A stretch of DNA of 64,000 nucleotides from Apostichopus japonicus (lineage: Eukaryota; Echinodermata; Holothuroidea; Aspidochirotida; Stichopodidae), in assembly GCF_037975245.1 (NCBI RefSeq), contig NC_092562.1, forward strand, positions 22,027,054 to 22,091,053, read 5' to 3'. A program made the position numbers and the translations under genes. How positions within the stretch are numbered: the first letter of the stretch is position 1; each line of letters opens with the position of its first letter. This document shows, one piece after another, positions 1 through 27,181 of this stretch. The notes beneath the pieces were generated by a model, which saw nothing but the letters and a program-made list of their open reading frames with translations, made no database searches and had not been told where the DNA came from.

Positions 1-242
1 TACTTGTATATTAGCATTTTGAACTAATTTGAACTTTTCTCAAGATTAATCTGCTTGGATATCTAGGATATGAATATGTCATCATAGGTAAGTTGCGGTT
101 GAACTGGAAGAACTTGTTATTGTCATTGATAATTATCGTCTTTCGCGGAAGGGGAGGGGAGGGGTTTGAGGGGGTTACGTCGGTAGAAAGATATATAAAC
201 AACTGTATATCTGAAAGGAATTAATATTGATATTGACCTTAG

Positions 243-498
243 ATGAGAGAAGAACGACTAACATCGTTCAAGAAATAGAAAAAGAAGTAACCGAGGAAGT
301 TTCATCGGTAGATGCTTTGGTCGACTTCCGCCAACTCCTTTACAACTCCCGCAACGAAGTGCAAATGGATACCCCTCGTCAGTTTAATAAGTGGTTGACG
401 TCTTTGCGAGGCTTGAGCAATGATTCCATTCATGCGGTATTTGACTTTATCTATGAATACGACCATTCTTCATCCGGTGAACCAGAAGAACTGGGACG
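243..498 (+). CDS. LLTP exon 1 of window: start of helical domain
   Basis: Encodes an amphipathic-helix stretch including WLTSLRGLSND, which resembles the apoB segment with LRGLSDEAV. The donor is ACG|GTAAGT and leaves two bases of a codon, completed by the first base of the next exon. The acceptor at 241-242 is weak in pyrimidines; an alternative AG at 216-217 would lengthen the exon by 25 bases. The downstream boundary is firm, the upstream one is not. Confidence 0.8.
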
Positions 499-2794
499 GT
501 AAGTTTCGTTAGAGAGGGAGCTAGATACACGACTCACGACTGAATCTTAATCTGTTTACATTGATCAAATTGAAACTAGCACCCTCTATATTTGGTTCGT
601 TAGGCACCACATAATTTTGTCTTACTGTGGTATTTATTGTTTTCCACAATATTTAAGGACGAATTCAGGATTTGGAAAAGGAGGGTATGTGCATGACCGT
701 GGGGTGTTTGAAGCCGAATCTCATGTAGGGCGCGTGGAAGGATTGGGGTGGGGGCGGTCTTTCTGTCAGAAATAGATGAGAAGTTGAAACTGGCATTCAT
801 ATGCATTTGAGGCCATAAAAGGTCTGCACGAATGATTATGGCTACTTTTTATAGTTTTTGTGTGGGGTTGATAAAAACAAGGGGGACATTATGTCGCCAA
901 ACGAAATGTCGATCAATCACTTTTTAGCCATATTGAATGACGTTTCCTCACTGACACCAGACGCCGCCTTTAAAAACTAAATATGGGAAGGAAAGAGGGA
1001 TAATGGGTACCCGTATATTGCAGGGAATGGGAAAATATAAACCTTACTTGGAGAACACAGGTTTTTTGATGTGGTTGAGTGGTTGTTGAGACAGACAGCC
1101 ACCTCGGCTGATTCGATTGCTACTTTTAGTCGCCATGCTCACCTTTAGGTTAATATTCATTTTTTGTTTGTAATCACAAATAGCGAGTACCTGTGGGATG
1201 GTTTACTACAATGCGGGACACTTCCCTGCCTGTCGGTCATCAACACCGCCATCATACAAAATCGAATTCCCAAACCGCTTGCCCACATCATGATGTATAC
1301 AATGGCATTCAGAGATCAACCGACCCTTGACCTTATCGCCGAGGGTTTTCGACTTGCTCAAGTCAACCGCACAAGGTCGACGTTTCTACCTGTTAGTGCC
1401 ATGATCTACCAGTACTGGGTGGAACATCCTGAATTAGAAAACAGTGAGGTAAGATCAGATAATCACAAGTGAAATAAAAACAGAAAAGAACAGTTATCAG
1501 GAATTTGAGACAAAGCATTTTCGAAAAAAAAAAACACAAATAATAAAGCCTACTCATTAAGGATCATCTTTCATGCATCCAAACATTTTACAATGACTAA
1601 AATGGTCAACTGTGGTCATACGTTTATACTTGTTACACTTATGACTTCTAGAACCTGATATGAACCCGTGACCTCTGGATTGTAATCCTGGGTCACTGGT
1701 TCGAATCGCGTTCTAGTGATAACAAAAAGGAGCAGATTTGCTTTTTCTCAAAATTCATTACCCGAGAACATGTTTTTGTGACCCAAGATTGGATGTATTC
1801 GACCAAACGAACATAGGCCTATTTCACTGATTAACAACAATTAAATTATTGCAACTATTTAAAGGTAAAGTGCCGCCTTGGTCAGAATGACTTACATGTA
1901 AGATATATACATATTAAAGTCTACCAACTTAGTCCAAGTTGGTAGACGTATGCGATTATACATCGAAGCTAAAATTCTATATAGTTCATGTCTTGACCAG
2001 CTGTTTTGGTTTCATCGTACTCTGAGTAGAAGTAGACCAACATGTTATTTGATAATATAATCAATGCGATTTAAAGATATCAAGTATTCAAGTTAAAGGT
2101 ATCAACAAATAAATCGTATTTCATTATGTCAATAAAAAAAATTGTGATATCATTAAATCATTTCATGATTCATGATAGTATTAATATAAATGTTAAAATC
2201 ACTAATTGGGTTTATTTAAAATTATCATTAATTGATAAGATGATATCTAAATACCTTTTGATGATATCGATACATCAATTAATTATATCATGACTAATCT
2301 AATGATATCATTTAAATGTAAATCAAAAGTAAAACGGCAAACGAAACCTCCCCCCCCTCCCCCAATTTCAAGAGACAAAAGCAAAGAAAATGTCAAGAGT
2401 TTGAATTGTCTGGCACTTCTTGACCTTGGGCTCCTTATGCTGTCGCCTAATATGCATCATTGGGTTAATCTGCGCCTGTATATCTTACAAGATCCTGTAA
2501 AGGACTGAGCGCAATAGTTGTTGATAAACTATAGAATCATGTTTTTGTTATTTACAGCTTCCGGTTCCTATCAGGAATTTCATTCAACTTTTGGAGGGTA
2601 TCATCGGAGAGGATTGCACCTTACGTTATGACGCAGACACCCCTGAAGGGATCGAAGAAAACAGACAACTATTGCTGGCATTGAAGGTAGCCTTAGTGAT
2701 ATCACACACTCATGGTATGAGGAAAGACACGTATAAGAAAGAAACATAAAACAAATATGATGAATACTTCATGCAGTGTAATAAACTACAACAT

Positions 2795-2835
<41 letters not shown>

Positions 2836-5800
2836 ATCTTAATATAGAGGTTTATATATAGTAATGAAAGCAGAAGGATTGCTTCTAGCGAGAACACAAA
2901 CTCATATCCTTCTTGAAATATCATTCTTAGGCTCTTGGAAATATCGGAGCTGTTGCCGACCAGTATGACGTTAACAACAATAAAAAGAAGGATCAATTTC
3001 AGAGAGATCTTTTGAGATGTTCAAGAAACAAAAATGCCTCCCCTAACATCACCCTTGGTGCGATACAGGCTCTCAGACGGTTTCAACCAAATAGTTTCGT
3101 CCAGAGGAAGCTCATGGTTACGTTCTTAGATAACTCGCGGCAGAACTCTGTCCGAGTTGCATCATTCTTGTTTTACATGAACTCTGATTTTGATGCAATG
3201 GAGTTTTTGGACATCTATGAAACTGTTCAAGACGAGAACGACAGTCAATTCAAGGCTTTCTTCTTCTCGTACATACGAAGCATACTCGATACAAGGAACC
3301 CTAAACTCGATAGGTAATGCAAATATTATTAAACGAATTTGTATAGTCAAACTTGCCTGAGTTTACAACAGCATGGTTATGTTTATGGTATAGGTATACG
3401 ATGTAATCGCGCGCCATCAAAATTGAACCAAAACGGAATTTTTAATGTGTTTCATTAATTTTAACACAAAGTTGGACCTGTCAAAGGGGGAAGACTTCCT
3501 CGAGGTTCGTGATCAGCCAAGGGGCCCTGGAAATTGTGAAGGGGACCTGAGAAAATAGAACGTCAAGAAAAGTGTATGCTCATTTCATAATAACTTTATA
3601 ACTTTAAATGCAAAAATGGGATGTGGAAAAGTGAGCCCGGTGACGTAATTAGGGCCGTAAATGAACTGTACTATAAATATTGTTCATAGGGTTTAAACGG
3701 TTCACATTACTGTAACAATCACATATATTTACACCTGCACAACGTATTATATTATATATTACCAATTTTAACTTTATGGAAAGATACGGTATAGTGGTAG
3801 TTTGCTTATACTCCATAAATCTTTAAATTTCAACTTGAGTATCTATAGGCCTAGCTGGTGTGAATCTACACCTCTCCAGATCGCAACGGAAAAATCTTTA
3901 ATTTCAAATGGCTAACAATTGCATGCATCGACCAGGGAGATGCTACTTGCAGAGATAGCCCATTGAGGGTCTCTGCAGCAACATTGTGCGTACTGTGACG
4001 TCACATCATGTAACCAGGACAACTATTATACTAAATGATATAACGACAATATGAGTGGCGGCTTCCATTCCAAGTTACCATGAATGTTGAATATCTAAGT
4101 CTAGACAACCAACCCAAGTGCTGCATGTGTGTCACCAAAATAAACAGGTGAAAAAACAAAAACAAAGAAACAAAAGAAAAGCTCAAAAGAAAAAGAATGA
4201 ACACCTGTTCATTGACAGTGTTGTTACAATGTTTGTAATCACAATTTGTAACATATTCTTCGTCTTAGCGATGGTTGCTATACAAAGCTTTATAAACCAT
4301 TGTCGTTTTTTGGGTTTTTCTTCACAATACATTTACATTGTTTGTTTCAGCTTAAAGGACAAACTTGTTAGAGTTATCGGAGGCGAAGACTTGCCAGAGT
4401 ATCCTAAAAACTGGGGGAAATACTCGAGACGATACGAGATGGCAAGAATGTTTAACATCTCTGGAAATAATACTCTTGGAGGTTCAGTAGAGAGTGACGT
4501 CATCTTTGAAGCCGATCAGATGGTACCATCTTCGATGATGATGAGATACGCCTTGCACGCAATGGGTAAAGACTGGGACCTAATTGAGGTACACACACAG
4601 CTCCTGATTTATGAGAAATGTAGAATTACGTGTGTTCTTTCATTTCTTTGCCGCAATGGGCTTGTCGTCGGGGAGGGGGGGGGGTAATGGGGGGAGGAGT
4701 AATGAATGGTGCCTGAGTATGACTCTCTTCGTTACTTTGTGATGTCTCAGAACAGTAGAATTTAGACCTTTCATTCCTTTAGATGTTTAAGTGTTTATAT
4801 TGTAACACATTGTTTTGTTACACAATGGACAGTATAGCGTAAAAGTGTATAACTCGTCCGTGTACCCCATGACAGCGATTGTGTGAGTAAATCGTAGCCT
4901 TTGGAAGGTTTGGGGGACAACAAATCATTTAAATGTACCCCTTACTGATACCGAATCAGACCAAATGAGCCATGTTAAGGTGGTGGTTTGTCATCAGAAC
5001 ATTTTGCAATTGACATGTCGAGTCTTGTAGGGTGGTTAACTTTGGAACCAAAAGATATATATATATAGGTTTAGTTTGTGTTGAAGATTGGTTAAAGTGG
5101 GTAACATATACCCCACAGAAATTTTTCACATGTCCTTTAGGAATCGGTTTTAGCTCTCCAAATTTAAAATGATATCAAATGAATAACAAGCTTCTCTTCT
5201 TAGACTGGTCTTCAACTGGAAGGTTTCGACGAAATGGCTGATGCACTCTTCGGTAGCGAAGGATTCTTTCCGAGTGAAATATCGAACGCCATCTTCAAGA
5301 CGTTAGACGAATCCATCATTCCTAGAATGAGATCATCGGTTTTGCCCCTTGATTCACTAGCTGATAAGTTAGAAGTCTTGAAACCAACAACCATAAATAA
5401 AGACGAAAAGGCGAAACGAAAGCTGCAGAAAATGAAGCAAAGAAACCAGCCAATACCGGTCGGTAGTTTAATACAGATATTTGAGAATGGCCAACTTGTT
5501 TCAGTTGTAGACGACGAAACTGCAGATGAGGTAACAACTACTTCCCATCCATTTGTTTTGTATTGCCTTTGTTGTTGTGGTTTTCGTTTTTATGCTAAAC
5601 AAGTACATTATGCGGCTTTTTTTTAAAAGAATTATGGTATTGACAATTTTGACAGGAAGATTTATGATCACGTGGTATAGTCTAAGATATATATGAATAA
5701 ATGGAGATGGGCTTGACGTCACAGATTGACAATGGTGACTACATGAACAATTCGGTCATTTCTTGGATGTATTAAGAAACAATAATGACAATGATAGTAA

Positions 5801-8800
5801 TCATGATATTAGTAGATTGCGCACGTTCATACCCATACCTTACGTATGTTTGTAGTTTATATGTGCATTGTGCTTGCGTGTGGAGGGTACGAAAATAATG
5901 AGGTGATAACAGGGTTTCACATAATGCTAAATTTATGACATAAAATCAGGAAACTCTTAAGAAACACCTATTCTCGGTGTGTACGATGACCACAAATAGG
6001 GGGAAACTATAAAAAAAAAGCCACTTCCCCACCACCTAAATACTAACTTTTATTGAATTTTGGAACGTTCTTTAAAAGGCAACATCTGTCGTTTAATTTT
6101 AAGTTTTATTCTACTCTTTGCACTTGTTTCTCTGAATTTTGATCCCAAAAGGAAGGTCAGTTCACCTTTGGTTTGTTATTTGGTTGGTTAGACAACACAG
6201 AAATAAATCAAAGCCAATGATTAATATTGACGTCGTCGGACAGGTGTGACATATTTATTTTTGATATAAATTCACTTTTTCCCCTCGAAAATATTGTTTT
6301 ATTGCATGAAGTCATAAGAGATTATGTTCCAATACAAGACTTTCCACATTTCTTTCTCACTGCCTACATGTAGCCAGAGTACGAAATTCTTCCGGAAGTT
6401 GAATCCAAATTGAACCGTTTCACAGAGGCCTTCAACAAAGGATGGGAGGAGCGCTTTGCTACCATGTACATCAAGGTACTCGGACATGAGCTAGGCTTCG
6501 TGACATTAGATGACCTTAGACAACTAGCAACGGCTGTTGACAAGACTATGATAAGAGACATGTTTCTCAAGGTGAGAGAATGGTACCAGAAAGTCTCCAA
6601 AAGGCGAGGCGTTTATATATTACTTATTGATTAAGGTCCAACGATAAATGATGAGTGATCGACAGTGTTTGGTGGGCAGGTGAGGTCACGTCAATAAAAT
6701 GAAACTTAAGCGCTTGGATGTAGTGCTACACTTATAGTCGGCTATCAATTAGACACTGTATTTCGGAGAAGAGAGAGAGACAGGGAGAGAGAGATGGATG
6801 CCAAGGGTGGTAGGATGGACGTTAGTCTGTAACATAGTTCCCTTTCACAAAGTTACATATATATTGATAGACAACTCATGAGTAAGATAACATCGAACCA
6901 TTCACGATATTCTTTTGTTTATATCAAGATGTTTAATTACATGTCGATGAGATGTACGTTAAGCCTAAACAGGGGGTGAGGGTTCGTGAATCAGGTCACT
7001 TAACATATAACAAAAAAACGCGCTTACCGCATACAGCGATGAACGGATGAACTACAGATGTTATGAAGCTTACCCTTGAGACATTCATCAAGGTTGACAT
7101 TGCCCACGTGACTGACCTTGCGGCTTCTCCCTGAAGTCTCAGTTTATAATGACAACACGATTCCCTTCACAGTGTCAAACTAAGTGTCTGGTATTTTTCA
7201 CCCGGTCAGGTTGCAGTGAAATTACGTGAAGGAATGGATGTTAACCTTACCAGATCTGTAGTCTTAGCTGAGCGTGAAGTCATCGTACCTACCGGCGTTG
7301 GTCTACCTCTCCAATGTTCCTTGAATGGAACTGCTGTTGTCTCTATGAGAACGACTAGTCAAGTTACTCTTCAGCTACCGTCACTCACGGCTTCTGGAAG
7401 AATTGCTCCCAGGTTTGATATACATGTTTATTGGCCAAAAAGGCCCTAAATTCAATTAAACTTAACGTTAGTTACCTGGCGACCATATGGGAAAATGTAC
7501 ATTTTGGCTGGTGTACAGAGTTCTTGGATCCCGGGATTTTGAGGTGGACACCCTCCCTTTTAACCCCACTAGAAATCATGGTATTTATCAGCACAACTGT
7601 GTGTGTAGGCGTTATTATAAAACCTAATTAATAGCCTAAATATGTCTCAAATTAAAATTTGTCAGGTCAAGTTTTTCAGGGGGGACCTCCACAACCCCTC
7701 ACACGGGAGTCGGCATCAGGAGCCTAGGGTGACAACTCCTCTTATTGAAATCCTGGATCCTTAATTGACCAACGACATATCCAAATACCACTTCTAAGAA
7801 GGATTTCACACGTATATGTAATTTAAATTGAAAAGGAGTTTTCTATTCTTCGTAGCGGAGGAATTCAGTTACTACGTGACATGAACATTCGTCTACCAAT
7901 GAGGCAAGGGAAAGTCGGTGTGGCAGCAGCAACATCGGTTCACCACAGCACCGAAATTGAAGGGAGTGTTAGCCTATTTAATGGTAAATTCACTGGACGA
8001 TTAACCGTTCCAGACAAACCGTTAGTACTCCTCAACGTATCGAGCGACAAGTTCTACACAAGTAATGACGGACAACTCGTCCCTGTTGACAAGGACGAGA
8101 CCGTCGTAAAGTCGGTAAGTGCTTAAATTTCACGATAAGACCTTTGCTATGTACGTTAGACAAAAGACACAATTTCAGTTCAAATTCTTATTTCTTCCGG
8201 CAAAAGGAGACAAGTTAAGGCAATACTTAAAAATAATTTATTCCTGTTCAACACTCTGCTTCCCACTAAATTGTCTTCATGCCTTGAAGTGTTCACCCCT
8301 GTGGGATATAATGCATGTTACCTTGTGCGTCTCTAAGTTTTTGCTCCTGTTTGTTTTTACAGTGCACCCAAACTAGACACGTCTTGGGGATGGAATTGTG
8401 TATTCTCAGGGGTAATTGGTATCTGCCCTCACAATTCAGCGTGTTTCTTAACAAAACCGACGAGTAAGTTAATCCCATCATTATCGTCTTCCAATCATTA
8501 TCGACATCATCGTTTTTTATGTGTTCAATTCTATCCTTCCAATTACCACATATGCTCCTTCTTTACGGAATTATCATTCAAGTTTTGTATGTTCGAAACA
8601 TCTTACATAAAACCTTTTGCCTCAAAAGAGAAAAATCTGGAGACATAAGTATCGAAACGTACATATACGATTCAAGTACGTTATTTTCAAAGTATTGATA
8701 TCTCGTAATAGTTTCAAACGTCGGAAATTGGCTTGGTTTGGCCACGTCACAAGGCATGACAGCATCTCCAAGGTAATACTCCAGGGCACTGTAGAGGGCG

Positions 8801-11800
8801 GTCGCAGACGAGGACGTCAGAGGAGAAACTGGTGAAGGACTGGACCGGCTTGGACATGCAAGAACTGCTCGCCACTGCTGCTAACAGATCTGCATTGAGG
8901 ACGATGTCAGCTGCAACCGTTATGTCTCCCCGACGACTTCACAGTCATGGGACTGAATGAATGAATGAATGAATGAATGAATGAATGAATGAATAGTTTC
9001 ACATATCTCTGAGAAACTAAAAGTTATCTTGTAAAATAATATAAGATCCCGAAAATATGCGGCTGGGAAACGTCGAAGTTGAAAATACGGCTTTGACAGC
9101 TACATCATCTTTTAAATCAGACACACTATGATTCTGACCGTCAGACATTCATGTTATTGTAATTCATCTATACCAACAGAACTTTAACATCATACAACTT
9201 TGAAGCTCAGTTTGAAGGTAAATCAGTGAAAGAATCACAAGAAAGTATCCCAAAGCCAAATAAGAATCGTGGCCGGCGATTTAGGAGACCAAGGAGGGAA
9301 TCTGGAGATCAGATTAACGAATATGTACTCCGACTAAACTTCTCTGCTCCTGGTAAGTCGTTATTCTACAGCCAACAATAAAGGTCTACATCGGATCAAT
9401 CATGAAAAACGCAAAGTAGTTTTCTTATTGCTTACGTTCCGATCAGTTGCCACAGTAGGATAACTGATGAAAAAATGAGGTAGCTAAGCAGGTTGATTAT
9501 TTTCTGCCTGACAGGTTACGTTTGCTTTTAAATGTGTTGTTGTTATAGAAAGCAGTATATGATAAAGGCGTTTCATTGTTAGCAGGAAAATAATTTCTCA
9601 TATACACCTCCTCAATCCGAGTTTCAGTATTTGATACTAAATAATTCGAGAGTAATGATTTATTTTTTATTTTTTATATCGTTGTGAGTTGAATTATGGA
9701 GCACACAAGGGTTGGGGGATGATAGGTAAAGTGAGAATGAAAAAAGAAATAGTATGAAGTTATCGAAAATAGCAGCAAGGGGGTATGGATAGGGAAGAAC
9801 GATGTATTGATCATATCGACAGTGTGGGACGACTGCTTCCGTAACATGTCTCTTCCCGCCGTTCTATCCTCTCCAGCCAAGAACCAATTGATGCGTGAGT
9901 ATGATCACCAGCACAAGACAAATGAACTTTTTTGGTATAAGTTTATATACTTGTAGGTTATTTGATTCCCCTTATTTTGAAAGGTGACCTTTTGAACCGA
10001 AATGTGACGTCACTGATGACCCTTACTCCCGAGAAGAAGGAGGTCAAGTGGAGTCTTAATATTCCTGAGATGGGTGATCTGAGAATATTTGCTGGCTTGT
10101 TGAATCTGAGCAATCCATCTACGGGAGAGCAAGGTATCCACGCAGTATGGAACGCCACTCATAATGAGACAAAGCTCTCCGTGTCAGCTACTTACATGAA
10201 TTCAACGATCTCAAGCAAAACCAATTACACAGGAGTCTTCAACGCATCCGTCAATGACTTAAAGTACTCGTGGGTTGCCCAACATATTGGCACAGATTCC
10301 TTTATGATGACTAGTTTGAATAACACATACTACTGGTGAGTCATTTCACGCAGAATTGTAAGGTCTTGAAGTATAATTTTAACTTACAAACTGCTTTATA
10401 TTTATCAATATCAAATATCAATATGTTTTTGCCATTTTCAGTTTGTCTCTTTCCTTTGTGAAGCTGAAGATGCACACTTAAACATATCGTAAAATATGGT
10501 AACAAACAAGCCATTTGAGATATTTCTCTTAATGTGTAACTTTCTTCAGATTTCAAATGACGTACGTTTTTAATCATAACGAATACATATATGTGATTTT
10601 TTTCCTTCTCAATCCCAATAAGTCTGTGCTGGACGAATCTGAATCCAGAAAAAAAAACTCACTCTAAAATAGTTTTTGAACGAAAATTTAAGAAAATAAG
10701 CATTCGATTTATTACAAAAGCTTTGATAAATGACACGTACTAAATCACTGCTTCTTATCTATTTCAGGGATGACGAGACATCTATTATCGATCAGCTCAA
10801 TGGGACCGATTACAAAATTAACCCAGACAAATACGTCAGAGCCGACTCCTACTTGAGGTGTATGAAGAATGACAATGAAATAAATTCAGTTTTATTCTTA
10901 ACTGTCTTTGGTCAGAATTTAACCCTTCAAAGCTTGGCGATAAAGACTCCAGAGTCCTACAACAACAAACTTCAGGGTTTATTCCAAAACAGTTTTATGG
11001 TAAGTTATGACAAATTTCTCAATAATGAAATAATTCGAATGTACGGTTTCACTGGTGTAACCTATCATCCGATTGGATGGAAAGGGTGGAATAAGCTATG
11101 TTGAGGACCAAAGGTAACTAGTACAATGTTTCTTGCGACGTGACAAAAAAACAAACTTTTTAACCTGATGCAACTATATTTGGCCTCCTCAGAATGTGTC
11201 ACTTTTCAACGCATCAATATCTCGTGACGTCAGCAAAGAAGACGAGAACACGTTGACCGCGACCGAGCTTAACATGTCACGTGGTAGCTACTCGACCCTC
11301 CTGAAAATCATTAAAGACGAAAATCTTACCGAGGCAACACAAAATTTTACGTGGGGAATACAATTCAGGAACGAGTCACAAAGTACCGGAGTGGTCAATA
11401 AAGGTAAATAGTCGCCTGGTGTTATATCGCGAGGACTGACAAATACTGCAAATCACCGTTATAACATGCTTAGTGTTAGAATTATTACAACCTAATATAT
11501 GTTATTCCAAAAAACAAACAACAAATACATCTTTTCAAAACTGTATTTAAAAAAAAGTCATGTTGATGACTGTGTATATATAGGTTATTTACGTTCATTA
11601 AGGTTCATTGTGAAAGACTTAATACCATGTTCATGATTGGAAGTATAACAACAACCTATAATTTACTTTAAATTTATAGCAGAAATTGCTTAAGATAGAC
11701 TACGCATCTAACATATATATTCGTCACATATACGTTCTGTAAAACGTCATTGAAATGTTATGAAGCAGATATCTGATAAGTTGCTCATGGACCCAACGCC

Positions 11801-14800
11801 TCACTTAAAGAAAGATCATTGTTGTACTTGGGTTATCTAACTGGCTATCTATTTTATAACGTTTGAGTATGTATTAACAATACACTAAAAGGTCGCTTAA
11901 ATGATTAACTCCTAGTTAGAAAACTATTTTACTTAAAACCGATCGTTTTTCTATTGTTTCAGATGGTTCTACCGATGACGTAGAAGATGGAAAACAGTTC
12001 AATATTACTACGTTTGTTTCATTCTTCGCTCGTAATGAAACAGTTGGTGCATCAGTCCCGAGTTACTACGTTTCTATGAATATATCAGTTCCAGTTATAC
12101 GTTCCTTGAATTTGACTGATCAAACTAGGCTTCAATGGGGATTCACCAGTCGTTTGACCAACCTTTTGTCACTCCCAGAGAATGACTGCGGTTATTTGTT
12201 TCAGATCAACAGCAGTATCCCATCACTAAACGTGAGACATTGCTTTGATTTGGGGTTGGACACGTCTTTTCTCTCCAATAATAGGACTGATCTTAAATTC
12301 ATGAAAGCTAAAATCCGTATGGAAATGTAGCAAATTACAACGGTTCAGCTAAGGTAACTACGTAGGGCTGCTCGTTCCTTCTCCGACCTCACTTCGCCCT
12401 ATCAACCGTCCTCTCTCCGCTCTATTTACAAGTGACGTATACTCTTCTGCCATCGGCTAGAGAAAAAATAATTCAGGCATCATTTCTATCTCTTGTCACG
12501 TACGGTACCTTAACTTTTTCAAGTCCCATAATGCTAACTAAAGTGTTTGTCCGTTCCGATGATCAACTAAGGCCTGTAATTAGTTCTATCTGTATAGCGT
12601 CTCCATAGTTTCCCTTTTTCTCTCTTCACATTCTCTGAACGTCATCTGTGTACTTCTAAATCAAAACTGACGAATGGGAAATCGTTTTTAGTTAATCTAG
12701 GGAGTTACATCCCATTCTACCATAGCCTACTATGTTAAGTGTATTCCTCTCATAACATTTATGATCTTGCAAACTATTCTTAGCATATTAAAACCCAAAA
12801 CGTTGTTACTTGTGTATGTGTATATCGTACATTATCTCAATATGTCACACTTCAAAGAAATAATAATTACATTATGCCAGAAATATATACAAAAAAGGGG
12901 CGCTCATCAAATCGTAAACGACGAAGTCACTTTGGTTCATACACGTCATCTTAGCGTCATGTATTTGTTCCTTTTAGAAGTCAGTGGTCCTAAGTATTTA
13001 TGTGTCTTTTGACTTTAGCCACAATTTAACCTTAGTTTCTTCTTTGTATTTTTTGAATGCATTCCTCTAGCTTGATGTCTCTAACGAGCTTTCCGTTGTT
13101 AACAAGACAACCGGAACGATGATAACAACTTACAGCCATGTTATTCGGGAGCGTACCTCCGGCGAGCAGCTGAATATATCTACCTACGGGCTACTTGATC
13201 CTGAGACAAAAGAGCTCAGAAGCGCTTATTACTTCATCAGTCCATACCATAACTACAGTGGCGAATTAATGACATCATTGAACGACGGATTTGTTCTCCG
13301 AGACAACATTAGTCAAGAAAGTTCATATTTACCAAACATGGCTAATTTTTCTCAGAATTGTAAGCCCCAATTAAATACTCATTAGAGTGAAATTAAGATC
13401 TGAAAATCATGTAATGAAATTGAAACCGTTATGTAAAGGAGGTTAGGTGGTATGAAGCGCTCGGATCTAAAGACTTAATGCAAGAAAATAATTGTCTTGA
13501 AATTATAACTTGTGTGCAAATTGGTCATCGGATTCCTTTTGTGGAGGTTGCATCTACATCTACCCTCCAGCAATGTATCTTTTCAAATGCAAATTCAAAT
13601 GATCAGCTTTCACATGGCACTCCCTCTATTAGAAGAGAACAAAATCGTATGACGTGACATTTCAAACCATGCATTACGATACTCAAATTATTCAAAAGTA
13701 CTCAATTGTTTTTCATACTCTTATATTTTCAGACTTCATTAATCTGAAGCCATGGAGGAATGCCAACATGGGATATTATTTGACGAACAGTATGCTCAAC
13801 GTCTCTTCCACTCATAGTGTTCAACTCGATGGGCCAATAACCGAAGTGAGCCTGCTGCATCTGCTGAATACTACTCGTGACGTCATCAACATGACCTTCC
13901 ACGGTGACCTGGACTCTTTAAAGGAGATTCTTCTTAACGTTTCTTACACGTTGACAAACAGTAGTATCAACGTTGATAATCATCATGAAGTGAAAAGTCC
14001 AGTTATACTTAACATTGATTTAACGCATCATTTATCTCTAGATAGCGACCACGTAAATCATAGCCTTATGATGGAACTTCAGGGATCAAATAGTAGTCTT
14101 AACCTAGATCACTCTGTAGAAGGTGACTTTACTTCTATTACATTGATCAGTGAAGTCAATGGTCACATTCATAGAGATAATTCCATTCGAAGCTTTACAG
14201 ATGGAAGGATGCGATGGGGCAAGTATTTAAAATCTCAAATAAGTCATGGAACAATTATTCAGGTACCGTCCTTGGTAAACTCATCAGTAACCGCTGATTT
14301 CACGATCGATAAATTGAGATCGTACTCACGATTTGACGTTATGCAGTCAAACCTTTATTCCCAGATGGAATCCATCTTCGGTGTGGGTAGTTTACATGGC
14401 AGATTAAATTTATACAACTTCAGGACATTCTCCAAATTTGCTCAATCTTCTGTGTACGGACAATCAATGATTGAGTCAAGGTTTTTCAATTGGACATCAG
14501 CTGGGGGCATAGATGGTAATGGTTTCGCAAGTTTATCTGAGTTTGGCAATGTCCAAACGCATGGTATACTTAAAGTCCATTCACCATTTGCTAAGTTCGA
14601 TTGCAACTGCTCCACTGAAGTTGACGGTCGTGAAGGAAAATATTGGGTGAAAAATATACAATCATCAAATCTTGTCAACTTTGAATCATTCCTGGGAAAT
14701 GGGATGTACAATTTTTCGTATCACATGGATAATATTGAATCATTGTTCACATTTGACGGGATTGATGGGTCGTCCGATTTTCACATATCGTCACTGCTAT

Positions 14801-17800
14801 TGAATATATCAGCTGTTAATCGACTCGACTTTGATGGGTTTGATAATACGTTTGATTTCGAGAGGATTCATGGTTTTTCGGACGTTACAATGGTATCATT
14901 CATCGGTGATAGTAATGTAACTCACTACTTCCAAATTGAATCATCTAGCAACCTAAGGACCTTTGAAAAGGTGAAAGCTGGCTTGCAATACAGCGTGGAC
15001 AGCGAGATGTACGGTACAGGTCAACTTTTGGGAACATTCGTTGTCTACAATAACTATGACGTCCTCAGTTTCAGCTTAGGAGAGGTGTCACTGAAAGGTG
15101 ATTTGACTTCTTACCTTGTTAACTCAACATTTGGCCACTTTTCAGAAGTACACGACATGGCTGGACCATTTGCCTACAGTTTTGCAAACTCTGAAGGAAA
15201 TTACGATCTTTCATTGTCTTTTTTCAACGCAACCGGCAACTACACTAGTAGCACAACGGGAAGGAAGAGCATGTTCGTTGTTGAAAACGTGACGAACGAA
15301 TGGCATTACGTTTCATCAACATCCATCTCTAATATGAATATTAAGGCAGGCACGTCACTGGTTCACGCTACTGGTTTTGCATCGCACGAATTACTTCTTA
15401 ACACCTTTCAGTTTCACTGGGATACGCCACTTGGTAACATCAAAACCGAAGTTCAACACAATCAGCAAAATATGCAAAATATCTTTACTTTTCATTCTTC
15501 TTCAATAACATTCGACTTCCGTATCGATGGAAAATTCGTCAATACAACTAGCTATTACTATGTAATGGGTGAGGGATTCCTTGATCTCTTCACATTCGAC
15601 AGTTTTAATATTTCTGCTTATCATGATGGTATGACTCGCTTTGGTCGTTCGTCAGCAGGATATGATCTAGTCATCACAGAGGTGTCCACTTTAAGTTTTA
15701 AAGAATTTTGCCACATGGAGAGTATGAACTTTACATCAAGCATATTCAATCTGAGTACCATGCTGGAGAATAGGGTTCACAACTTCAAAGGTTTTATGAA
15801 GTACGATTTTGCATCATCAGAGAGTATCATCAATCTTCAAAGCCACCTCCTGCATCACCAGTTTTACTCGATTTTAAGGGCGACCGAATCTAAAGGCGTG
15901 ACACAATTGGATAGAGTCGAAGTTAGATCTAGAATGAACACGACGTCATCAATTCATCGGCATATCTTCAATACAAACCTTACCGTTTCTGGCATGAGGG
16001 GTGTTTTTAAGGTAGACAATATTAATTGGAACGTCGTCGAACAAATTCAGTTCAGTAATCTTTCCATTGATGTTAGCTCTGTGTATGGACATAACGGCCA
16101 GACTTCATTGTTTACTTACGACGGTTTAAGTATTAAGTCTAATGTTTCGATATCAAGTCCCAAACTACTTTTCAAAACTGATTATTCATATAACGTACTG
16201 GGTTCCTCTGGATTATTCCAAAGAGAGAACGTCAAGTTCTGGGGCATGACTTCCTTTAGAGCATATAAAGTATCAGGAAGGATCGTATTTGAGTCTGATG
16301 TGAAAGATCAGACAGGTATATCGTCGTTTGCCGAATATCATACGAAGCATAACATCACTTTCGAAAGTCCATTCATCAATTTGACTTCCGTGGAACGTAT
16401 GGAAATGCAAGATCAATTGCACATGCTCTACTTCAAAAGACTACAGAATAATGGAACCTTCAATTTGACAATTCTGGGAGAAAACATGCACCATGGGTGG
16501 AGCACGTTAGTAGAAGACAGCTCTGGCTGGTGGACACTACAAAATATGGTGTTCACGTACGACTTTATGAGTCAAGGCTCTGTTAATTGCTCGAACTCCT
16601 TTCTTTTTACTATTGGCGGCTGCTCTGGGTTCGGTCATTTTGAAGAGATGGTTTTAAGTCATACTACGCAGATATCAAGTGAAATGCTTAATGGTACGTC
16701 ATCGGCTAACTATACCCTGGCAGGGGTTAACGGTGATGTGAAGAGAATTTCTGGTGGGTCAAATGCAGCATTTGATACACCGGTGGGAAGATTGATTGGC
16801 GATGCAACAACTGTAGTAAGAAAATATGGTAAAACGTATCACCTCCACTGGATCACTCCAATCGGAGAGATCAATATGACGATCGATCACGTTCAGAAAA
16901 AAATTAAAACCCTATTCCAGTTTGATAGTGCAAGTATTAGTGTTACATCCAGTGTGTCTGGGAGCGTAGTTAATGGCACAGGAAACATGATAATTTCTGG
17001 AAATGGGTTTAAGAGCTTAGCTACGTTTTCAAAATTCAATGTTACCGCCGATCTTGAGGCACAGGCTTTAGTATTAGGAATGGTATCCGGGGATTTCAGT
17101 ATGCACCTTACAAAAGTAAATGGCTTCAGTTTCAAAAAATTCTACATGTCCGAAAGTTTGAATTCTAGCACCGAGAATACTAAATTTGCGAGCATGCTAT
17201 CTTACAATATGAAGAATACTGTTGGGTTCTTCAATATAGATTACGTTCAGCTTTTGACCGGAGTACATGCTCAGAGTCCTTTCGTTGATACCAGTTTCTT
17301 CTATGGAGCCGAAGCACAAGGCGTTCGTGGACCAACCCAAGTTCAGAGATTTAATTGCACAACCGCTGTCAAATGCTCTTCCTCGTTATTTGTCTACAAG
17401 TTAAAGACTGACGTGGTGGTGGATAACTCACAGAGTATATCACACGTGGACTACATAGCAATCATGTTTGAAAATTCAGTAGAGAGTGGTCAATCAGCCA
17501 TGCTGGCTGTAGGTGGGTTTGAGCTCATAGGGCAGCAATCAACACTAGTTTACGAAAAATTGGTTGCTGGAGCAAACGTTACTGTATCGACATCGCCTAT
17601 TAGTTTATCTTTGCAAGAAACTTACGAAGTAGTGGATTCTAATGGCTTGTTTAGTAGTAAGAGTTTCAGGTTAACTTCTAGAGGTACGATGAACTCGGTG
17701 CTTTCATCCGGGGATTTCGAGCTTCTAGCTGGAACTGCCAATCAAAATGGAGCGTTCACTTTTGATAACGCAGTCATGTCGTTGCTATCCACAATTAATA

Positions 17801-19887
17801 GCCCAACGACAAACTTAACATTAGATACCAAGTTTGAGATCCAAGGTCAAGTTCGATTTTTGCACTACAAGTATTTTAACCATAGTGCATTCATGTATTT
17901 GGATATGCCAGGGGAAGTAATGCAGCATTCTTACACGTTCCAATTAGAAGAAGGATCTGGATGGTTTCGCAACCGTGCCATGAATATGACCTACAGTGGT
18001 GAAGACACCGGATTGTTTAACTCCTCCGTTTCATATCAATATTCTCGTGGTGATCCTTCAGACGCCGGTGTACACGAAGGATTTCAATATCAGATCAATA
18101 TCGCTAGTAGTTTCCTGAATGCCTCCTCCAGTAGCATTTCGTCTACATATGAACCTACAAAACTTGCCGACGATGATAATGATTTCGAAGAGTTTGAAGC
18201 AAATCTTGCAACTCCGCTTGGTGATTTTTATGGGTTTGGCCTAATGCAAACTAGGAATTTCGAAAAAGTAATACACTTCCATTTCGTAACTGCATTTGGG
18301 GAAGGTAATGTTACCATGACCGTAGCAAGAAATAAGTTTGTCAATCCATTCCAATTTGAAGATGCTAGTTTGAAAGTTGATACAATTTTTACTGGTAAGT
18401 TTGTAAACATGTCAGGCTTTTCTCTTTTAGCTGGAAAAGGCTTTTCTGGCCCCTTTAACTTTGTCAATTTCACCGTGACAAGTAAATATGTTTCTAGTTT
18501 ACCGTTGGAAACAACAGCTAGTTCTGATGCTTTTATGTATATCACTCATATGAATGGTTTAGCATTCGAAAAGTGTCATTTTGCTGAGAACTACCAAGTT
18601 GACTCCGACTTTCTGAATGCAAATGCAATGCATGAAACAACCGTTAACAATTTACGCGGTGTCTTTGACTTTGACTATGGGTTAACTGCGGCTGATTTCC
18701 AAGTTCGCAGCAGTAAAGTTGACTTAGGTTATGGCTTTATTTCTGACATATCTGGTGCTCAAGGCGTATCTCATTTCAAGAGGTTTAGATGGAGTTCTAG
18801 TGCAAACACTTCTTTGCCAATGTTCACACATCAACTCAGCGGCGAGCTCAACATATCCAGTATGGCGGGACTTACTCAAGCAAAACACATGACAGCGGAG
18901 TTTGTGCACTTATTGGAAACTGGTGGACTATCCTTTCTAGGTAACGGCGACTTCGAACTCGTGGATAGCACTGCCACATTCACTTTTGACACAGTAAACG
19001 TACTCGTAAACGTTTCAATGAAGAATGCCGATAAAGCTATGAAGTTAACTTTCACTCATGTCGTGTACAATTCTACCGGATTTTTGTTTTTTGATGAGTT
19101 CACTGAAACAAGCGTTTGTGAAATAACATCATCCGACTCATCAAGCAGCTATAGCTCATACTTACAATACCTCCAAGGTCGTGGTTTGTTTAATTTCGGT
19201 GATTTCTCGACTGGCACCAATGCATTGTTCAGCAATTCCAAAACCAATTGGACCTTTGATATGCACACGAAAATTCACAATGCAACCAACTTTTTGTACT
19301 TCAAACTGATGGACACCAACTGTAGTATTAGTATGAACATAGGTGATGAAGACATGAATCATATGTATCGAATGATTATGACAGATTCCTCTGGATGGTC
19401 GAAGTACGGTCAAATAGATATAGTTTACGAAGGCGAGAACAGAGGAGTCTTCAACTCGAATGCCTCCTATCATTTTCATGTCGATGGTATGTCAGAGATG
19501 TGGGTCTACGATGAATTCAGTAATACCTACATGGTGGAATTCAACAGTGAGCTGATGAACGGTAGTGTCCATAGCAATGCATCTATCACTCAGTCAGAGG
19601 GCTTTCTCTCATTTCTTGAAATCAAAGGACAAACATCAGCACGAACATCGAATGGTCTCGGTGAAGCGGAGGGAATGATCCTACTTCATGCCAGTGACGT
19701 CAGTGTGCCACTGAAGGCTAAGGATTTCTCTTTCCACGGGTCAGTATCTTTTGAAGACTTTTTGCAATCGGGTGTTACTGCCAAGGCAGACTCATTATCA
19801 CTACCGCAAAACCACGAAGGATTATATGCTTCATGGTCACTAGAGAGTCAAATGGGTTCGGCAAACTTTTCCACTGGCATCTTGTAA
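243..19887 (+). CDS. Large lipid transfer protein (apoB/apolipophorin-like), 5' end outside window
   Basis: Secreted lipid carrier of the apoB/apolipophorin/vitellogenin superfamily. Coding exons: 243-498, 1184-1448, 2558-2686, 2931-3313, 4351-4588, 5204-5530, 6374-6571, 7210-7412, 7856-8114, 8363-8463, 9180-9352, 9957-10335, 10768-10999, 11193-11403, 11963-12231, 13071-13359, 13733-19887. All junctions are GT-AG and phases agree throughout, giving 3354 codons plus stop. Exons 1-10 match the order of blocks in vertebrate apoB: helical domain with a conserved Cys pair, then ALFGSEGFFP, LGHELGF and PTGVGL motifs, i.e. the lipovitellin-like transfer module. Exon 11 has a polybasic cleavage candidate. 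The rest should be beta-rich lipid-binding sequence. The signal peptide and first few hundred residues lie upstream of the window. No C-terminal von Willebrand D domain is visible. I do not assign an orthologue name; apolipophorin-like is the safest label. Confidence 0.93.
1184..1448 (+). CDS. LLTP exon 2: helical domain with conserved Cys pair
   Basis: Acceptor ATAG|CGAG, donor GAG|GTAAGA. The peptide has LLQCGTLPCLSV, matching the apoB LVQCGQPQC region, followed by a helix pair. Its phase fits the previous exon (2+1 bases). Confidence 0.9.
1648..1716 (+). repeat. tRNA-derived relic (SINE-like)
   Basis: A perfect 7-bp acceptor-like pair, CTAGAAC with GTTCTAG, encloses a loop-like TGGATTGTAATCC and a B-box-like GGTTCGAATCG. 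The D and T arms do not fold well, so I see a decayed tRNA-derived repeat rather than a working tRNA. It lies in an LLTP intron. Confidence 0.4.
2558..2686 (+). CDS. LLTP exon 3: helical domain
   Basis: 43 codons in phase 0 between ACAG|CTT and AAG|GTAGCC. The peptide LPVPIRNFIQLLEGIIGEDC continues the helical repeats; the terminal Cys corresponds to the QIQDDC position of apoB. Intron 3 just downstream contains a (TA)n(TG)n microsatellite. Confidence 0.85.
2795..2835. repeat. (TA)n(TG)n microsatellite
   Basis: Alternating TA then TG dinucleotides in LLTP intron 3. Confidence 0.95.
2931..3313 (+). CDS. LLTP exon 4: helical domain core
   Basis: Begins ALGNIGAVADQYDV after TTCTTAG and ends ...NPKLD before GTAATG. 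The motifs AIQALRRFQP and FLDNSRQNSVRVASFLFYM align with apoB AIQALRKMEP and FLDDASPGDKRLAAYLMLM. It ends in phase 2, completed by exon 5. Confidence 0.92.
4351..4588 (+). CDS. LLTP exon 5: end of helical domain into beta sheet
   Basis: Acceptor TTTGTTTCAG|C. The motifs YPKNWGKYSRRYEMARMF and MVPSSMMMRYALHAMG align with apoB residues around DFRKFSRNYQLY and YLPKESMLKTTLTAFG. Ends in phase 0 at GAG|GTACAC. Confidence 0.92.
5204..5530 (+). CDS. LLTP exon 6: ALFG/GFFP segment
   Basis: Encodes TGLQLEGFDEMADALFGSEG and then FFP, closely matching apoB [20 protein letters not shown]. A lysine-rich segment follows (EKAKRKLQKMKQR), then LIQIFENGQLVS. This is the strongest family signature in the gene. 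Phase 0 on both sides. Confidence 0.95.
6374..6571 (+). CDS. LLTP exon 7: LGHELGF segment
   Basis: 66 codons in phase 0. YIKVLGHELGFVTLDDLRQL aligns with apoB YLRILGEELGFASLHDLQLL. Acceptor CATGTAG|CCA, donor AAG|GTGAGA. Confidence 0.94.
7210..7412 (+). CDS. LLTP exon 8: PTGVGL beta-sheet segment
   Basis: Contains EVIVPTGVGLPLQCSLNGTA, aligned with apoB AFELPTGAGLQLQISSSG. Begins after GTCAG and ends CCCAG|GTTTGA in phase 2. Confidence 0.93.
7856..8114 (+). CDS. LLTP exon 9: beta sheet
   Basis: Completes the split Ser codon. The peptide includes LRDMNIRLPMRQGKVGVAAA and LTVPDKPLVLLNVSSDKFY, resembling the apoB stretch of IIPSPKRPVKLLSGGNTLHL. Donor TCG|GTAAGT. Confidence 0.9.
8363..8463 (+). 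CDS. LLTP exon 10: short Cys-containing exon
   Basis: A 101-base exon between TTTTTACAG and GA|GTAAGT. It encodes CTQTRHVLGMELCILRGNWY, with two Cys that match a Cys pair in the corresponding region of apoB (SVCKQVFPGLNYC). Its phase requires one base from exon 11. Confidence 0.87.
8712..8995 (+). mobile_element. LINE 3'-end fragment with (ATGA)n tail
   Basis: In LLTP intron 10, the frame ending at 8835 reads KLAWFGHVTRHD and then EGGRRRGRQRRNW, a well-known C-terminal motif of non-LTR retrotransposon reverse transcriptase proteins. A frameshift follows, with recognisable continuation in another frame (KDWTGLDMQELLATAANRS). The copy ends in about nine (ATGA) repeats at 8956-8995, as CR1/L2/RTE-type tails do. 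It is a 5'-truncated, dead copy on the + strand; I cannot name the clade. Confidence 0.8.
9180..9352 (+). CDS. LLTP exon 11: polybasic (furin-like) insert
   Basis: Acceptor CAACAG|A, donor CCTG|GTAAGT. Between two beta strands (TSYNFEAQFEG and YVLRLNFSAPG) lies an insert rich in Lys, Asn and Arg whose core, at 9268-9297, reads RGRRFRRPRR and is followed by ES. It contains overlapping R-X-[K/R]-R sites (RGRR, RFRR, RPRR). Insect apolipophorin precursors are cut by furin into two subunits; a similar cut here would separate the transfer module from the tail. Confidence 0.88.
9268..9297 (+). other. Putative furin cleavage site in LLTP
   Basis: The codons read RGRRFRRPRR and are followed by ESGD. 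R-X-[K/R]-R is the furin consensus; RGRR, RFRR and RPRR all satisfy it. The site sits in an insert that has no counterpart in vertebrate apoB, between the lipid-transfer module and the beta-rich tail. Confidence 0.7.
9957..10335 (+). CDS. LLTP exon 12: beta-rich
   Basis: Acceptor TTGTAG|GT, donor TACTG|GTGAGT. The encoded peptide has strands such as VKWSLNIPEMGDLRIFAGLL and several N-glycosylation sequons (NVT, NAT, NET, NST, NYT, NAS). It corresponds to the start of the lipid-binding beta domain. Confidence 0.9.
10768..10999 (+). CDS. LLTP exon 13: beta-rich
   Basis: Acceptor ATTTCAG|G completes a Trp codon, and the donor ATG|GTAAGT leaves phase 0. Contains NGTDYKINPDKYVRADSYL and NLTLQSLAIKTP. 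No domain beyond the family beta region is recognised. Confidence 0.88.
11193..11403 (+). CDS. LLTP exon 14: beta-rich
   Basis: Acceptor CCTCCTCAG|AAT, donor AAAG|GTAAAT. The peptide NVSLFNASISRDVSKEDENT begins with two sequons. Ends after one base of a codon. Confidence 0.88.
11963..12231 (+). CDS. LLTP exon 15: beta-rich; donor set by phase
   Basis: Acceptor TGTTTCAG|AT. The reading frame stays open to a stop at 12328-12330, but only the donor AAC|GTGAGA at 12231 gives the phase 0 that exon 16 needs. Two other GT candidates (after 12316 and after 12353) give the wrong phase, and the second also includes the stop. Contains DCGYLFQINSS. Confidence 0.85.
13071..13359 (+). CDS. LLTP exon 16: beta-rich
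   Basis: Acceptor TTCCTCTAG|CTT, donor AATT|GTAAGC. Encodes LDVSNELSVVNKTTGTMITT and onward; ends after one base, completed as a Tyr codon by exon 17. Confidence 0.88.
13733..19887 (+). CDS. LLTP exon 17: giant terminal exon with 478-codon repeats
   Basis: A single 6155-base exon (about 2050 residues) that begins after TATATTTTCAG and ends at TAA. It is beta-strand-like, poor in cysteine (about a dozen) and has more than 50 N-X-S/T sequons. From about 15412 it consists of three tandem units of 477-478 codons, annotated separately. Exact spacing is shown by the Trp of an SGW motif at 16528, 17962 and 19396. The segment before 15400 may be an older degenerate copy, and the last 60 codons look like the start of a fourth. 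I recognise no named domain outside the family's lipid-binding beta region. Three AATAAA hexamers lie 130-160 bases after the stop, supporting a true gene end. Confidence 0.95.
15412..16842 (+). repeat. LLTP intragenic repeat unit 1
   Basis: First clear copy of the 478-codon unit (here 477 codons). Anchors: FHWDTPLGNI at 15412, GEGFLDLFTFDSFNI with Phe at 15577, LYFKRL with Leu at 16426, SSGWW with Trp at 16528, and FGHFEE near the end. The unit boundary is arbitrary; I start it at the F/L-H-W/F anchor. Confidence 0.88.
16843..18276 (+). repeat. LLTP intragenic repeat unit 2
   Basis: Second copy, exactly 478 codons. Anchors: LHWITPIGEI at 16843, GNGFKSLATFSKFNV with Phe at 17008, LHYKYF with Leu at 17860, GSGWF with Trp at 17962, and YSGEDTGLFNSSVSY. 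Protein similarity to the neighbours is low, but the spacing is almost unchanged. Confidence 0.9.
18277..19710 (+). repeat. LLTP intragenic repeat unit 3
   Basis: Third copy, 478 codons. Anchors: FHFVTAFGEG at 18277, GKGFSGPFNFVNFTV with Phe at 18442, LYFKLM with Leu at 19294, SSGWS with Trp at 19396, and YEGENRGVFNSNASY. After it the protein ends within about 60 residues. Confidence 0.9.
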
Positions 19888-20015
19888 TGTCATCGTGGAT
19901 TCGGAGCTTAAATACGTTCTTCGTGACATTTTAAGTCCTTGATGAGCTAGTTAAACAAATTTCATGTATTCCTCTCCTCTAATTTCAAAGTAAACTAAGC
20001 CGTTTTTTTTAACGT

Positions 20016-20045
20016 AATAAATAAATATTAATGATAAATAATAAA
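20016..20045 (+). promoter_or_regulatory. Polyadenylation signals of LLTP
   Basis: AATAAA at 20016-20021, overlapping AATAAA at 20020-20025, and another at 20040-20045, about 130-160 bases after the stop codon. Confidence 0.7.
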
Positions 20046-20198
20046 CAATCGACAGTGATATCATTGTTCTGTAAATTTGTTGTTCCTCTTTTTGGGGTGG
20101 GCGTGGGGGCATTTTTTTTTGGGGGGGGGGCACAATTGTGTTACGATAAAACTGTTCGAAAGCGACCAAAACGATACAATTTGGCATCAGCAGCGTTA

Positions 20199-20395
20199 TT
20201 GATTGATTGATTCCGAATAATTCACCACATCGCCATTGGGACTGTACCTCCGGACTGCTCATGGTTTACTCCCGACGCTTTACCAATGAATGGGTATAGC
20301 CGCAAGGCAGCGGAGCTGTACTATAAAGGTTGACAAGCCCGGCCTACCGAAACCATCTGGTTTTGAAGCCCAATCGGACCGCCACTTCTGTCAGT
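20199..20395 (-). mobile_element. Probable non-LTR retroelement 3' end, (ATCA)n-type tail
   Basis: Read on the minus strand, a moderately GC-rich non-coding block ends in tandem AATC units (20199-20212). That pattern resembles the 3' UTR and tail of CR1/L2-like elements. No coding motif remains, so the call rests on the tail and base composition only. Confidence 0.45.
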
Positions 20396-20399
20396 TATT

Positions 20400-23079: not shown

Positions 23080-23184
23080 CAGGGATGTGCCCAGGATTTC
23101 CTGAGTGCCGGTATACTGATCGATTTTTGAAGGTGCTCAGATGCCAAATGTTGGCACTTGTGTAGCTTTATAAGCACATACACA

Positions 23185-26990: not shown

Positions 26991-27181
26991 CAATACACTA
27001 CAGACGATAACAATACAAATTCCCTCAACTTTAGGCCTAACTGAAGCAGGATACTCGACTCATTTCGCTGTTCGATATTGGACAACAATAGTCCTTTGTG
27101 GATACCAGTAGTCTAACAAGCTGCCAAACATCTTTGTTCTTCTCTTTCTCCTCAGTGTACTATTTTATACCACTTTGCGTC

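What the first reader, a model, noticed from the sequence alone, without database searches (positions are those of the whole stretch)
15412..19710. Three tandem 478-codon repeats of nearly invariant length in one lipid-carrier exon
Four independent anchors repeat with almost exact spacing. Seen directly: the SGW Trp at 16528, 17962, 19396 (1434 and 1434 bases); the LYFK-like Leu at 16426, 17860, 19294 (1434, 1434); the F/L-H-W/F anchor at 15412, 16843, 18277 (1431, 1434); the GxGF Phe at 15577, 17008, 18442 (1431, 1434). The copies are strongly diverged in sequence, yet only one codon of length changed. Such length conservation with sequence drift suggests each unit is one structural module of fixed beta-strand register, for example a quantum of lipid surface. 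Known apoB/apolipophorin tails are beta-rich, but I know of no described repeat of this size in them.
Basis: partly seen in the sequence, partly recalled or inferred. Interest (0 to 1): 0.85.

Follow-up and report, generated by a model that had tools for sequence, protein, structure and literature searches.

The report
Echinoderm apoB-like protein's repeat-built lipid belt
A lipid-carrier gene of what appears to be an echinoderm ends in a tail built of about fifty 35-residue beta-hairpin-like repeats, a stretch of which was copied to give three 478-residue units; the tail probably forms a long sheet that wraps a fat droplet, as human apolipoprotein B does.

Summary
In detail: all twelve anchors are where stated, and the three units (477, 478, 480 aa) align over most of their length (BLASTP E 5e-40 and 3e-32; alignment z 37-51 over shuffles). 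But the 478-aa unit is not the basic module. The tail, and that of a paralogue 15 Mb away, is an array of 35-residue repeats (about 53 and 36 copies); 478 = 14 x 35 - 12. Both junctions carry the same 9-residue shortening, read as a duplication scar. AlphaFold of one unit gives two ~14-residue strands per 35 residues; its best solved match is human apoB-100. An Asn-x-Ser/Thr site recurs at one repeat position, and 92 of 95 placed sites fall on polar-face strand columns. The gene is an apoB-type large lipid transfer protein. The paralogue has one unit, more repeats, a helix-like exon and a vWD domain; this gene has three units and stops. Best reading: an amphipathic, possibly glycosylated beta-belt lengthened by unequal crossing-over. 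The 'quantum' idea is not supported: length is equally conserved in the unduplicated tail. A large triple repeat is already reported in human apoB (PMC9569473). New variant of a known kind.

The parts
218..13364 (+). Exons (with introns) of the N-terminal part of gene A; stretches matched to paralogue B: 218-487, 1176-1442, 2558-2671, 2931-3314, 4349-4600, 5204-5413, 6350-6574, 7207-7413, 7851-8078, 9962-10336, 10766-11002, 11974-12249, 13071-13364 (exon ends approximate). The gene begins upstream of the window (at or before C2:22024738).
   Evidence: tblastn of paralogue B open frames; Pfam Vitellogenin_N and Vit_open_b-sht; apoB-100 in PDB E 1.7e-37
13733..19887 (+). Tail exon: 2050 full codons plus TAA stop; read as the last exon of gene A
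   Evidence: TTTTCAG acceptor at the same place as in paralogue B, stop 19885-19887, no donor like B's GAG|GTGAGT seen by eye at the end
14320..15396 (+). About ten 35-residue repeats before the large units (some irregular); shared with paralogue B
   Evidence: circular 35-column profile; 33% identity, 1 gap event with B over 552 aligned residues of the pre-unit tail, A residues 34-588
15397..16827 (+). Large unit u1, 477 aa
   Evidence: AlphaFold model
16828..18261 (+). Large unit u2, 478 aa
18262..19701 (+). Large unit u3, 480 aa
16777..16854 (+). u1/u2 junction: 26 residues between successive T-P-x-G turns instead of 35
   Evidence: counted by eye on the sequence and profile alignment
18211..18288 (+). 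u2/u3 junction: the same 26-residue spacing (T-P-x-G to T-A-F-G)
   Evidence: counted by eye on the sequence and profile alignment
19702..19884 (+). 61 residues after u3, about 1.7 repeats, in phase with u3
20016..20045 (+). Two AATAAA polyadenylation-like signals (20016, 20040), about 130-150 bases after the stop

Best explanation
Gene A encodes an apoB/apolipophorin-type large lipid transfer protein, probably of an echinoderm. After the N-terminal lipid-transfer module, its tail is an array of about 53 copies of a 35-residue beta-hairpin-like repeat. Each copy has strand 1 (columns 3-17), an S/T-P turn, strand 2 (columns 20-33) and a Gly turn. Hydrophobic residues alternate with polar ones, so the strands together would make one long antiparallel sheet with a lipid face and a water face. 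The sheet most likely lies as a belt around a lipid droplet, like the apoB-100 belt on LDL, with N-glycans, most often at column 21, pointing outward. Belt length would set how much lipid surface is covered: 53 repeats x 2 strands x 0.48 nm gives about 51 nm, enough to ring a particle of about 16 nm. The three 478-residue units arose by tandem duplication of 14 repeats, out of register by 9 residues at the joint, then by in-register unequal crossing-over that copied the same joint. Shown: repeats, units, junction spacing, sequons, paralogue. Predicted: strands and sheet. Inferred: secretion, belt on lipid, glycan occupancy, particle size, mechanism and order of duplication.
Against: The tail finds no apoB chain by sequence, and nothing in the PDB better than E 0.14; no Pfam family beyond one chance-level hit (E 0.12 in 1 of 13 windows). 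The five AlphaFold models of u1 range from pLDDT 78.9 down to 29.0, its first ~65 residues are below 50, and the apoB superpositions have large rmsd (9.8 and 27.4 A), so the sheet's curvature is not established. Outer-membrane beta-barrels follow apoB closely in both PDB comparisons. The second model, across the u1/u2 junction, failed (pLDDT 40). Sequon columns come from a profile trained on the same sequences; with column composition kept, column-21 counts average 10.7 (A) and 12.3 (B) with maximum 16 in 500 shuffles each, so A's 16 equals that maximum and only B's 18 exceeds it. A's repeats are irregular before residue 230 and around 300-370. No expression, glycan or particle data.
Confidence: 0.75

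Rival explanations
1. One reading: the 478-residue unit is itself a selected structural module, one fixed parcel of lipid surface, and natural selection keeps whole units.
For: Units differ by at most 3 residues in length while only 21-28% identical, and the paralogue's unit is 479 aa, aligning to u3 with no gap.
Against: A 35-residue register explains the same thing. The unduplicated pre-unit tail shows 1 gap event in 552 residues between paralogues, while pairs with u1 show 5-7 gap events in 468-472 residues, about the rate of six N-side exon pairs (7 in 569). The paralogue has further 35-mers, not 478-mers, after its unit. The junctions are imperfect (26 instead of 35 residues), as expected of a crossover scar rather than a module boundary.
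Confidence: 0.12
2. The 35-residue strand pairs close on themselves into barrels or a solenoid holding lipid inside (or fold as separate globular domains), instead of an open belt on a droplet.
Against: ApoB-100 is the best match in both PDB comparisons; the gene's N-terminal module is apoB-like; the array runs through roughly 100 strands with no obvious break at a strand number at which a barrel would close (by eye).
Confidence: 0.12
3. Three (or two) units are the ancestral state of both paralogues, and gene B lost the extra ones by unequal crossing-over, rather than gene A gaining them. This concerns the history only and is compatible with the best explanation.
For: The best 4-unit tree joins u3 with B's unit (78% bootstrap of 200; AU p 0.836); units differ from each other as much as from B's unit (21-26% identity against 21-24%).
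Against: The topology (u2,u3 | u1,B) is not rejected (AU p 0.207); four long branches (0.8-1.1) give little power; no 26-residue junction is seen in B (by eye).
Confidence: 0.4

Closest known systems
Human apolipoprotein B-100 (LDL beta-belt)
   Same: Best PDB sequence match of the N-terminal module (E 1.7e-37) and best PDB fold match of the unit; amphipathic beta-sheet belt (PMC12419007, one passage); two-level repetition reported in the human protein: ~28-residue repeats (1528-1944) and three large repeats over 2610-4059, about 483 residues each by my division (the paper gives '547 residues length'; PMC9569473).
   Different: No detected tail sequence homology; the period is 35 and regular; no helical exon found after the tail of gene A, whereas human apoB has helical regions between and after its beta regions (recalled); sequons denser than in human apoB (recalled).
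Apolipophorin II/I and apolipocrustacein (APO family with vWD)
   Same: LLT module and, in paralogue B, a vWD domain after the tail, as described for this family in PMC1783640 (abstract and passages).
   Different: Gene A ends after the third unit without vWD; no DUF1081 match found in the joined exons.
Paralogue B in the same genome (C2, about 6866556-6889049, minus strand)
   Same: Matching exon order and tail-exon acceptor; same 35-residue repeats; one 479-residue unit.
   Different: One unit instead of three, then about 12 more repeats, an 831-aa helix-like exon (judged by eye) and a vWD domain.

Membership tests
Large lipid transfer protein superfamily | N-terminal lipid-transfer module (Vitellogenin_N, open beta-sheet) | tested here: met
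   PF01347 and PF09172 over cut-off
APO family (apoB, apoLp-II/I, apolipocrustacein) | Closer to apoB than to vitellogenin | tested here: met
   apoB-100 E 1.7e-37, lipovitellin E 7.3e-6 among PDB sequences; no tree of the family was built
APO family (apoB, apoLp-II/I, apolipocrustacein) | DUF1081 domain in the central region | tested here: inconclusive
   no match in exon translations joined with approximate boundaries (E up to 0.1, up to 10)
Apolipophorin-type (APO with vWD) | C-terminal vWD domain | tested here: not met
   gene A is read as ending at 19887, and B's vWD frame found no match at E <= 0.01 from 20 kb upstream to the end of the window; met in paralogue B
ApoB-100-like beta-belt | Long antiparallel amphipathic sheet | tested here: met
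   by prediction only: model; apoB best match; alternating hydrophobic columns
ApoB-100-like beta-belt | Sheet lies as a belt on a lipoprotein particle | not testable with these tools
   needs lipoprotein isolation or cryo-EM
ApoB-100 large triple repeat (residues 2610-4059) | Sequence homology of the large repeats | tested here: inconclusive
   profile of the three units finds no apoB chain among PDB sequences up to E 10

The most novel reading that the evidence does not exclude
A module of about 480 residues (14 strand pairs) is an ancient building block of APO-family lipid belts, present once in echinoderm gene B and three times in gene A and in the second beta region of human apoB. Animals tune lipoprotein size by changing how many modules a carrier holds, and a regular row of N-glycans on the outer face keeps the belt from aggregating or binding the wrong partner.
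Probability: 0.1. Interest if true: 0.8.

Novelty: new variant of a known kind. Interest (0 to 1): 0.5.

Why it matters
ApoB-type belts are hard to read from sequence because their strands are irregular (general knowledge, recalled). Here a like architecture seems to be written as a regular 35-residue code in two paralogues of different belt length. That makes testable whether belt length sets particle size, whether strand register limits how these proteins grow, and whether outward glycans are part of the design. It also gives a clear case of a giant lipid carrier growing by segmental duplication inside one exon.

Tried and rejected
Rejected: a recent DNA-level tandem repeat. Third codon positions are 28-30% identical between units, and the tandem repeat finder lists no array between 12111 and 23230 at score 80 or more (its longest period is 500 bases, so this tests the 105-base repeat, not the 1434-base unit). 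Rejected: gene A continuing in a helix-like or vWD exon as B does (tblastn of the B helix-like exon against the window: two chance-level hits, E 4.3 and 6.2; no hit of B's vWD frame; none of the forward-strand open frames of 40 aa or more from 19888 to 23600 scored positively on the tail profile). A spliced exon farther away is not excluded. Other tails of this kind in the genome: protein searches with u2 (6 matches) and with the whole B tail (4 matches) found A and B, plus one 90-residue fragment at C4:2328856 with three stops (E 0.0086); these searches score only the best candidates. Within the loci fetched around three other Vitellogenin_N-like places and that fragment, none of the open frames of 120 aa or more scored clearly above its shuffles on the tail profile.

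Led nowhere: the junction model (pLDDT 40); PDB profile searches with the units or the 5-repeat windows; a first seed HMM for the 35-mer (script error) and a second script that stopped on a file-writing error; the viral fold library, where the top named hit is a phage fibre at low TM. The list barely tests the first ~60 residues of the model, which were poorly predicted.

Literature limits: ten searches showed in their listings no paper on a 35-residue or 478-residue repeat in an echinoderm lipid carrier; the library lacks most subscription papers, and two 2025 Nature papers on apoB structure are not held, so what I say of them is recalled. Seen: PMC9569473 passages and sections 6 and 8; PMC12419007 one passage; PMC1783640 and PMC9249923 passages; all others only as search listings.

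Full report
All twelve anchor residues and their spacings are exactly as written. The reading frame is open from 13633 to 19884, 2084 codons. Among all self-offsets from 20 to 1699 residues, 478 has the highest similarity (z 15.0); the highest value at any offset from 20 to 1599 in 50 shuffles is 4.1. Unit-against-unit alignments score 371-463 against shuffle means of 48-52; BLASTP E is 5e-40 and 3e-32 for u1/u2 and u1/u3.

THE FINER REPEAT. The same offset scan shows peaks at 35, 70, 105 and 140 residues, and the paralogue's tail shows them even more strongly (z 15.4, 11.0, 9.6 at 35, 70, 105). A circular 35-column profile trained on both tails scores 2129 bits. Ten shuffled and retrained controls score 567-679, and ten other periods 597-799; these controls had arbitrary seeds and at most 15 training rounds against 25. 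From residue 230 to the end, tail A holds about 53 copies and tail B, from residue 209, about 36; a few copies are irregular, notably A 300-370. The consensus is G-L-F-x-F-D-x-[hydrophobic], then alternating hydrophobic and polar residues, an S/T-P turn at columns 17-18, then hydrophobic-N-hydrophobic-T/S at columns 20-23 and alternation again to about column 31. Hydrophobic residues sit on one side of each strand (column means).

HOW 478 RELATES TO 35. A unit is 14 repeats, 14 x 35 - 12. Thirteen run nearly in phase; at the u1/u2 and u2/u3 junctions the distance between successive T-P-x-G-type turns is 26 residues instead of 35, and it is 26 at both (counted by eye). After u3, and after the single unit in B, the phase runs on without such a shortening. 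My inference: one tandem duplication joined repeat 14 to repeat 1 out of register by 9 residues, and a later in-register exchange between copies made the third unit and copied the scar. An even number of strands seems to be kept at the junction, so the sheet could continue. The structure prediction across the junction was too poor to test this (pLDDT 40).

LENGTH CONSERVATION. Between units there are 0 to 7 gap events over 468-479 aligned residues (six pairs of four units, B's included): 0 for u3/B, 1 for u2/u3, 3 for u2/B and 5-7 for the three pairs with u1. The part of the tail before the units has 1 gap event in 552 residues at 33% identity between A and B. Six N-side exon pairs have 7 gap events in 569 residues at 22-47% identity. 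So constant length is seen in the unduplicated tail as well, and the u1 pairs are no tighter than the N-side exons: it does not single out a 478-residue module.

GLYCAN SITES. Counting Asn-x-Ser/Thr from the start of the array, A has 49 sites (48 placed on columns, one in an insert, left out below) and B 47. Column 21 holds 16 and 18; the most in any column over 1000 shuffles is 6. On polar strand columns lie 47 of 48 and 45 of 47, in a turn 0 and 2, on lipid-face columns 1 and 0; the lipid-face columns are my choice from the column hydrophobicity. Of all placed Asn residues 14 of 130 and 15 of 111 lie on lipid-face columns, so much of this follows from Asn being polar. With column composition held fixed, column-21 counts average 10.7 and 12.3 (maximum 16 in 500 shuffles each) and total sites 38.2 and 32.1 against 49 and 47 observed; pairing of N with T/S at column 21 is in excess in B and at the edge in A. 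That these sites carry glycans is inferred.

WHICH GENE. Upstream exons match Vitellogenin_N and the vitellinogen open beta-sheet. Joined N-side exons match apoB-100 at E 1.7e-37 and lipovitellin at 7.3e-6. The tail exon begins at an acceptor at 13733, at the same place as in B, and ends at TAA 19885-19887 with AATAAA at 20016 and 20040; B instead has a canonical donor, GAG|GTGAGT. Paralogue B, 15 Mb away on the same chromosome, matches A exon by exon over most of the gene. It has a 1497-residue tail frame with one unit (E 4e-74 with the profile of A's units), then an 831-residue frame that looks helical by eye, and a vWD domain. No match to these was found after A. Gene A thus looks like a belt-only version, reminiscent of apoB-48 (recalled). 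No other gene in this genome was found to share the tail (best candidates only).

ORGANISM. The genome is 671.6 Mb in 35 contigs. Its mitochondrial contig reads plausibly under code 9 (Asn for AAA in the COX1 start) and has the order COX1-Arg-ND4L-COX2-Lys-ATP8-ATP6-COX3-ND3-ND4-His-Ser-ND5-CYTB-Phe, with ND1 and ND2 on the same strand as COX1. From recalled knowledge this is the echinoderm order without the sea-star inversion, so a sea cucumber or sea urchin is most likely. Protein gene names on that contig are my reading, not an annotation.

AGE. Units are 21-26% identical to each other and 21-24% to B's unit, with third codon positions at 28-30%. The best tree joins u3 with B's unit (78% bootstrap), the topology (u2,u3 | u1,B) is not rejected (AU p 0.207) and the third is marginal (p 0.047). 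Whether A gained units or B lost them is open.

WHAT IS KNOWN. PMC9569473 reports, by HHrepID, 15 repeats of ~28 residues (1528-1944) and three large repeats over 2610-4059 of human apoB-100, the latter listed with '547 residues length' and p 3.3e-228. 1450 residues divided by three is 483, close to 478; this division is mine. Its beta-propeller model for that region differs from the belt described in the review PMC12419007. A profile of the units does not find apoB by sequence, so the likeness in size may be chance or convergence. The finding is therefore a new variant of a known kind: unusually regular, sequon-rich and, in gene A, belt-only.

Noticed in passing
window 32355-34085 (+): Open frame of 577 aa with reverse transcriptase and GIY-YIG domains, the arrangement of a Penelope-like element (name recalled).
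   Followed up: no
window 27098-27799, 29009-30250, 37614-38237, 49505-50704 (+): Exons of at least two sodium:solute symporter genes downstream of gene A, probably a local cluster.
   Followed up: no
L012:1353-3845 (-), paralogue B: 831-aa exon, helix-like by eye, with 40 Asn-x-Ser/Thr sites (shuffles average 8.4) and 61% of its Asn in such sites; no Pfam match up to E 0.1.
   Followed up: partly
window about 9268-9297 (+): Polybasic stretch RRFRRPRR in an N-side exon of gene A, possibly a furin-type cleavage site (PMC1783640 mentions a subtilisin-like site in apoLp-II/I and apolipocrustacein); no such stretch is seen by eye in B's matching exon.
   Followed up: no
window 52215-52549 (145-base period) and C2 about 6862218-6862899: A dispersed repeat family found in the window also lies downstream of paralogue B.
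   Followed up: no
G000:C4:2328856-2329131 (L022): 90-residue fragment 35% identical to unit u2 with three stops, E 0.0086; chance or a dead fragment.
   Followed up: partly
G000:C29:14745-31219: COX1-like pieces on a second contig beside the mitochondrial contig C35, probably nuclear copies or a second assembly of the mitochondrial genome.
   Followed up: no
L015 / L007 (C2:1571021): the genome search gives an open frame of 515 aa around this Vitellogenin_N hit, but the fetched DNA shows none over 138 aa there; unexplained.
   Followed up: partly
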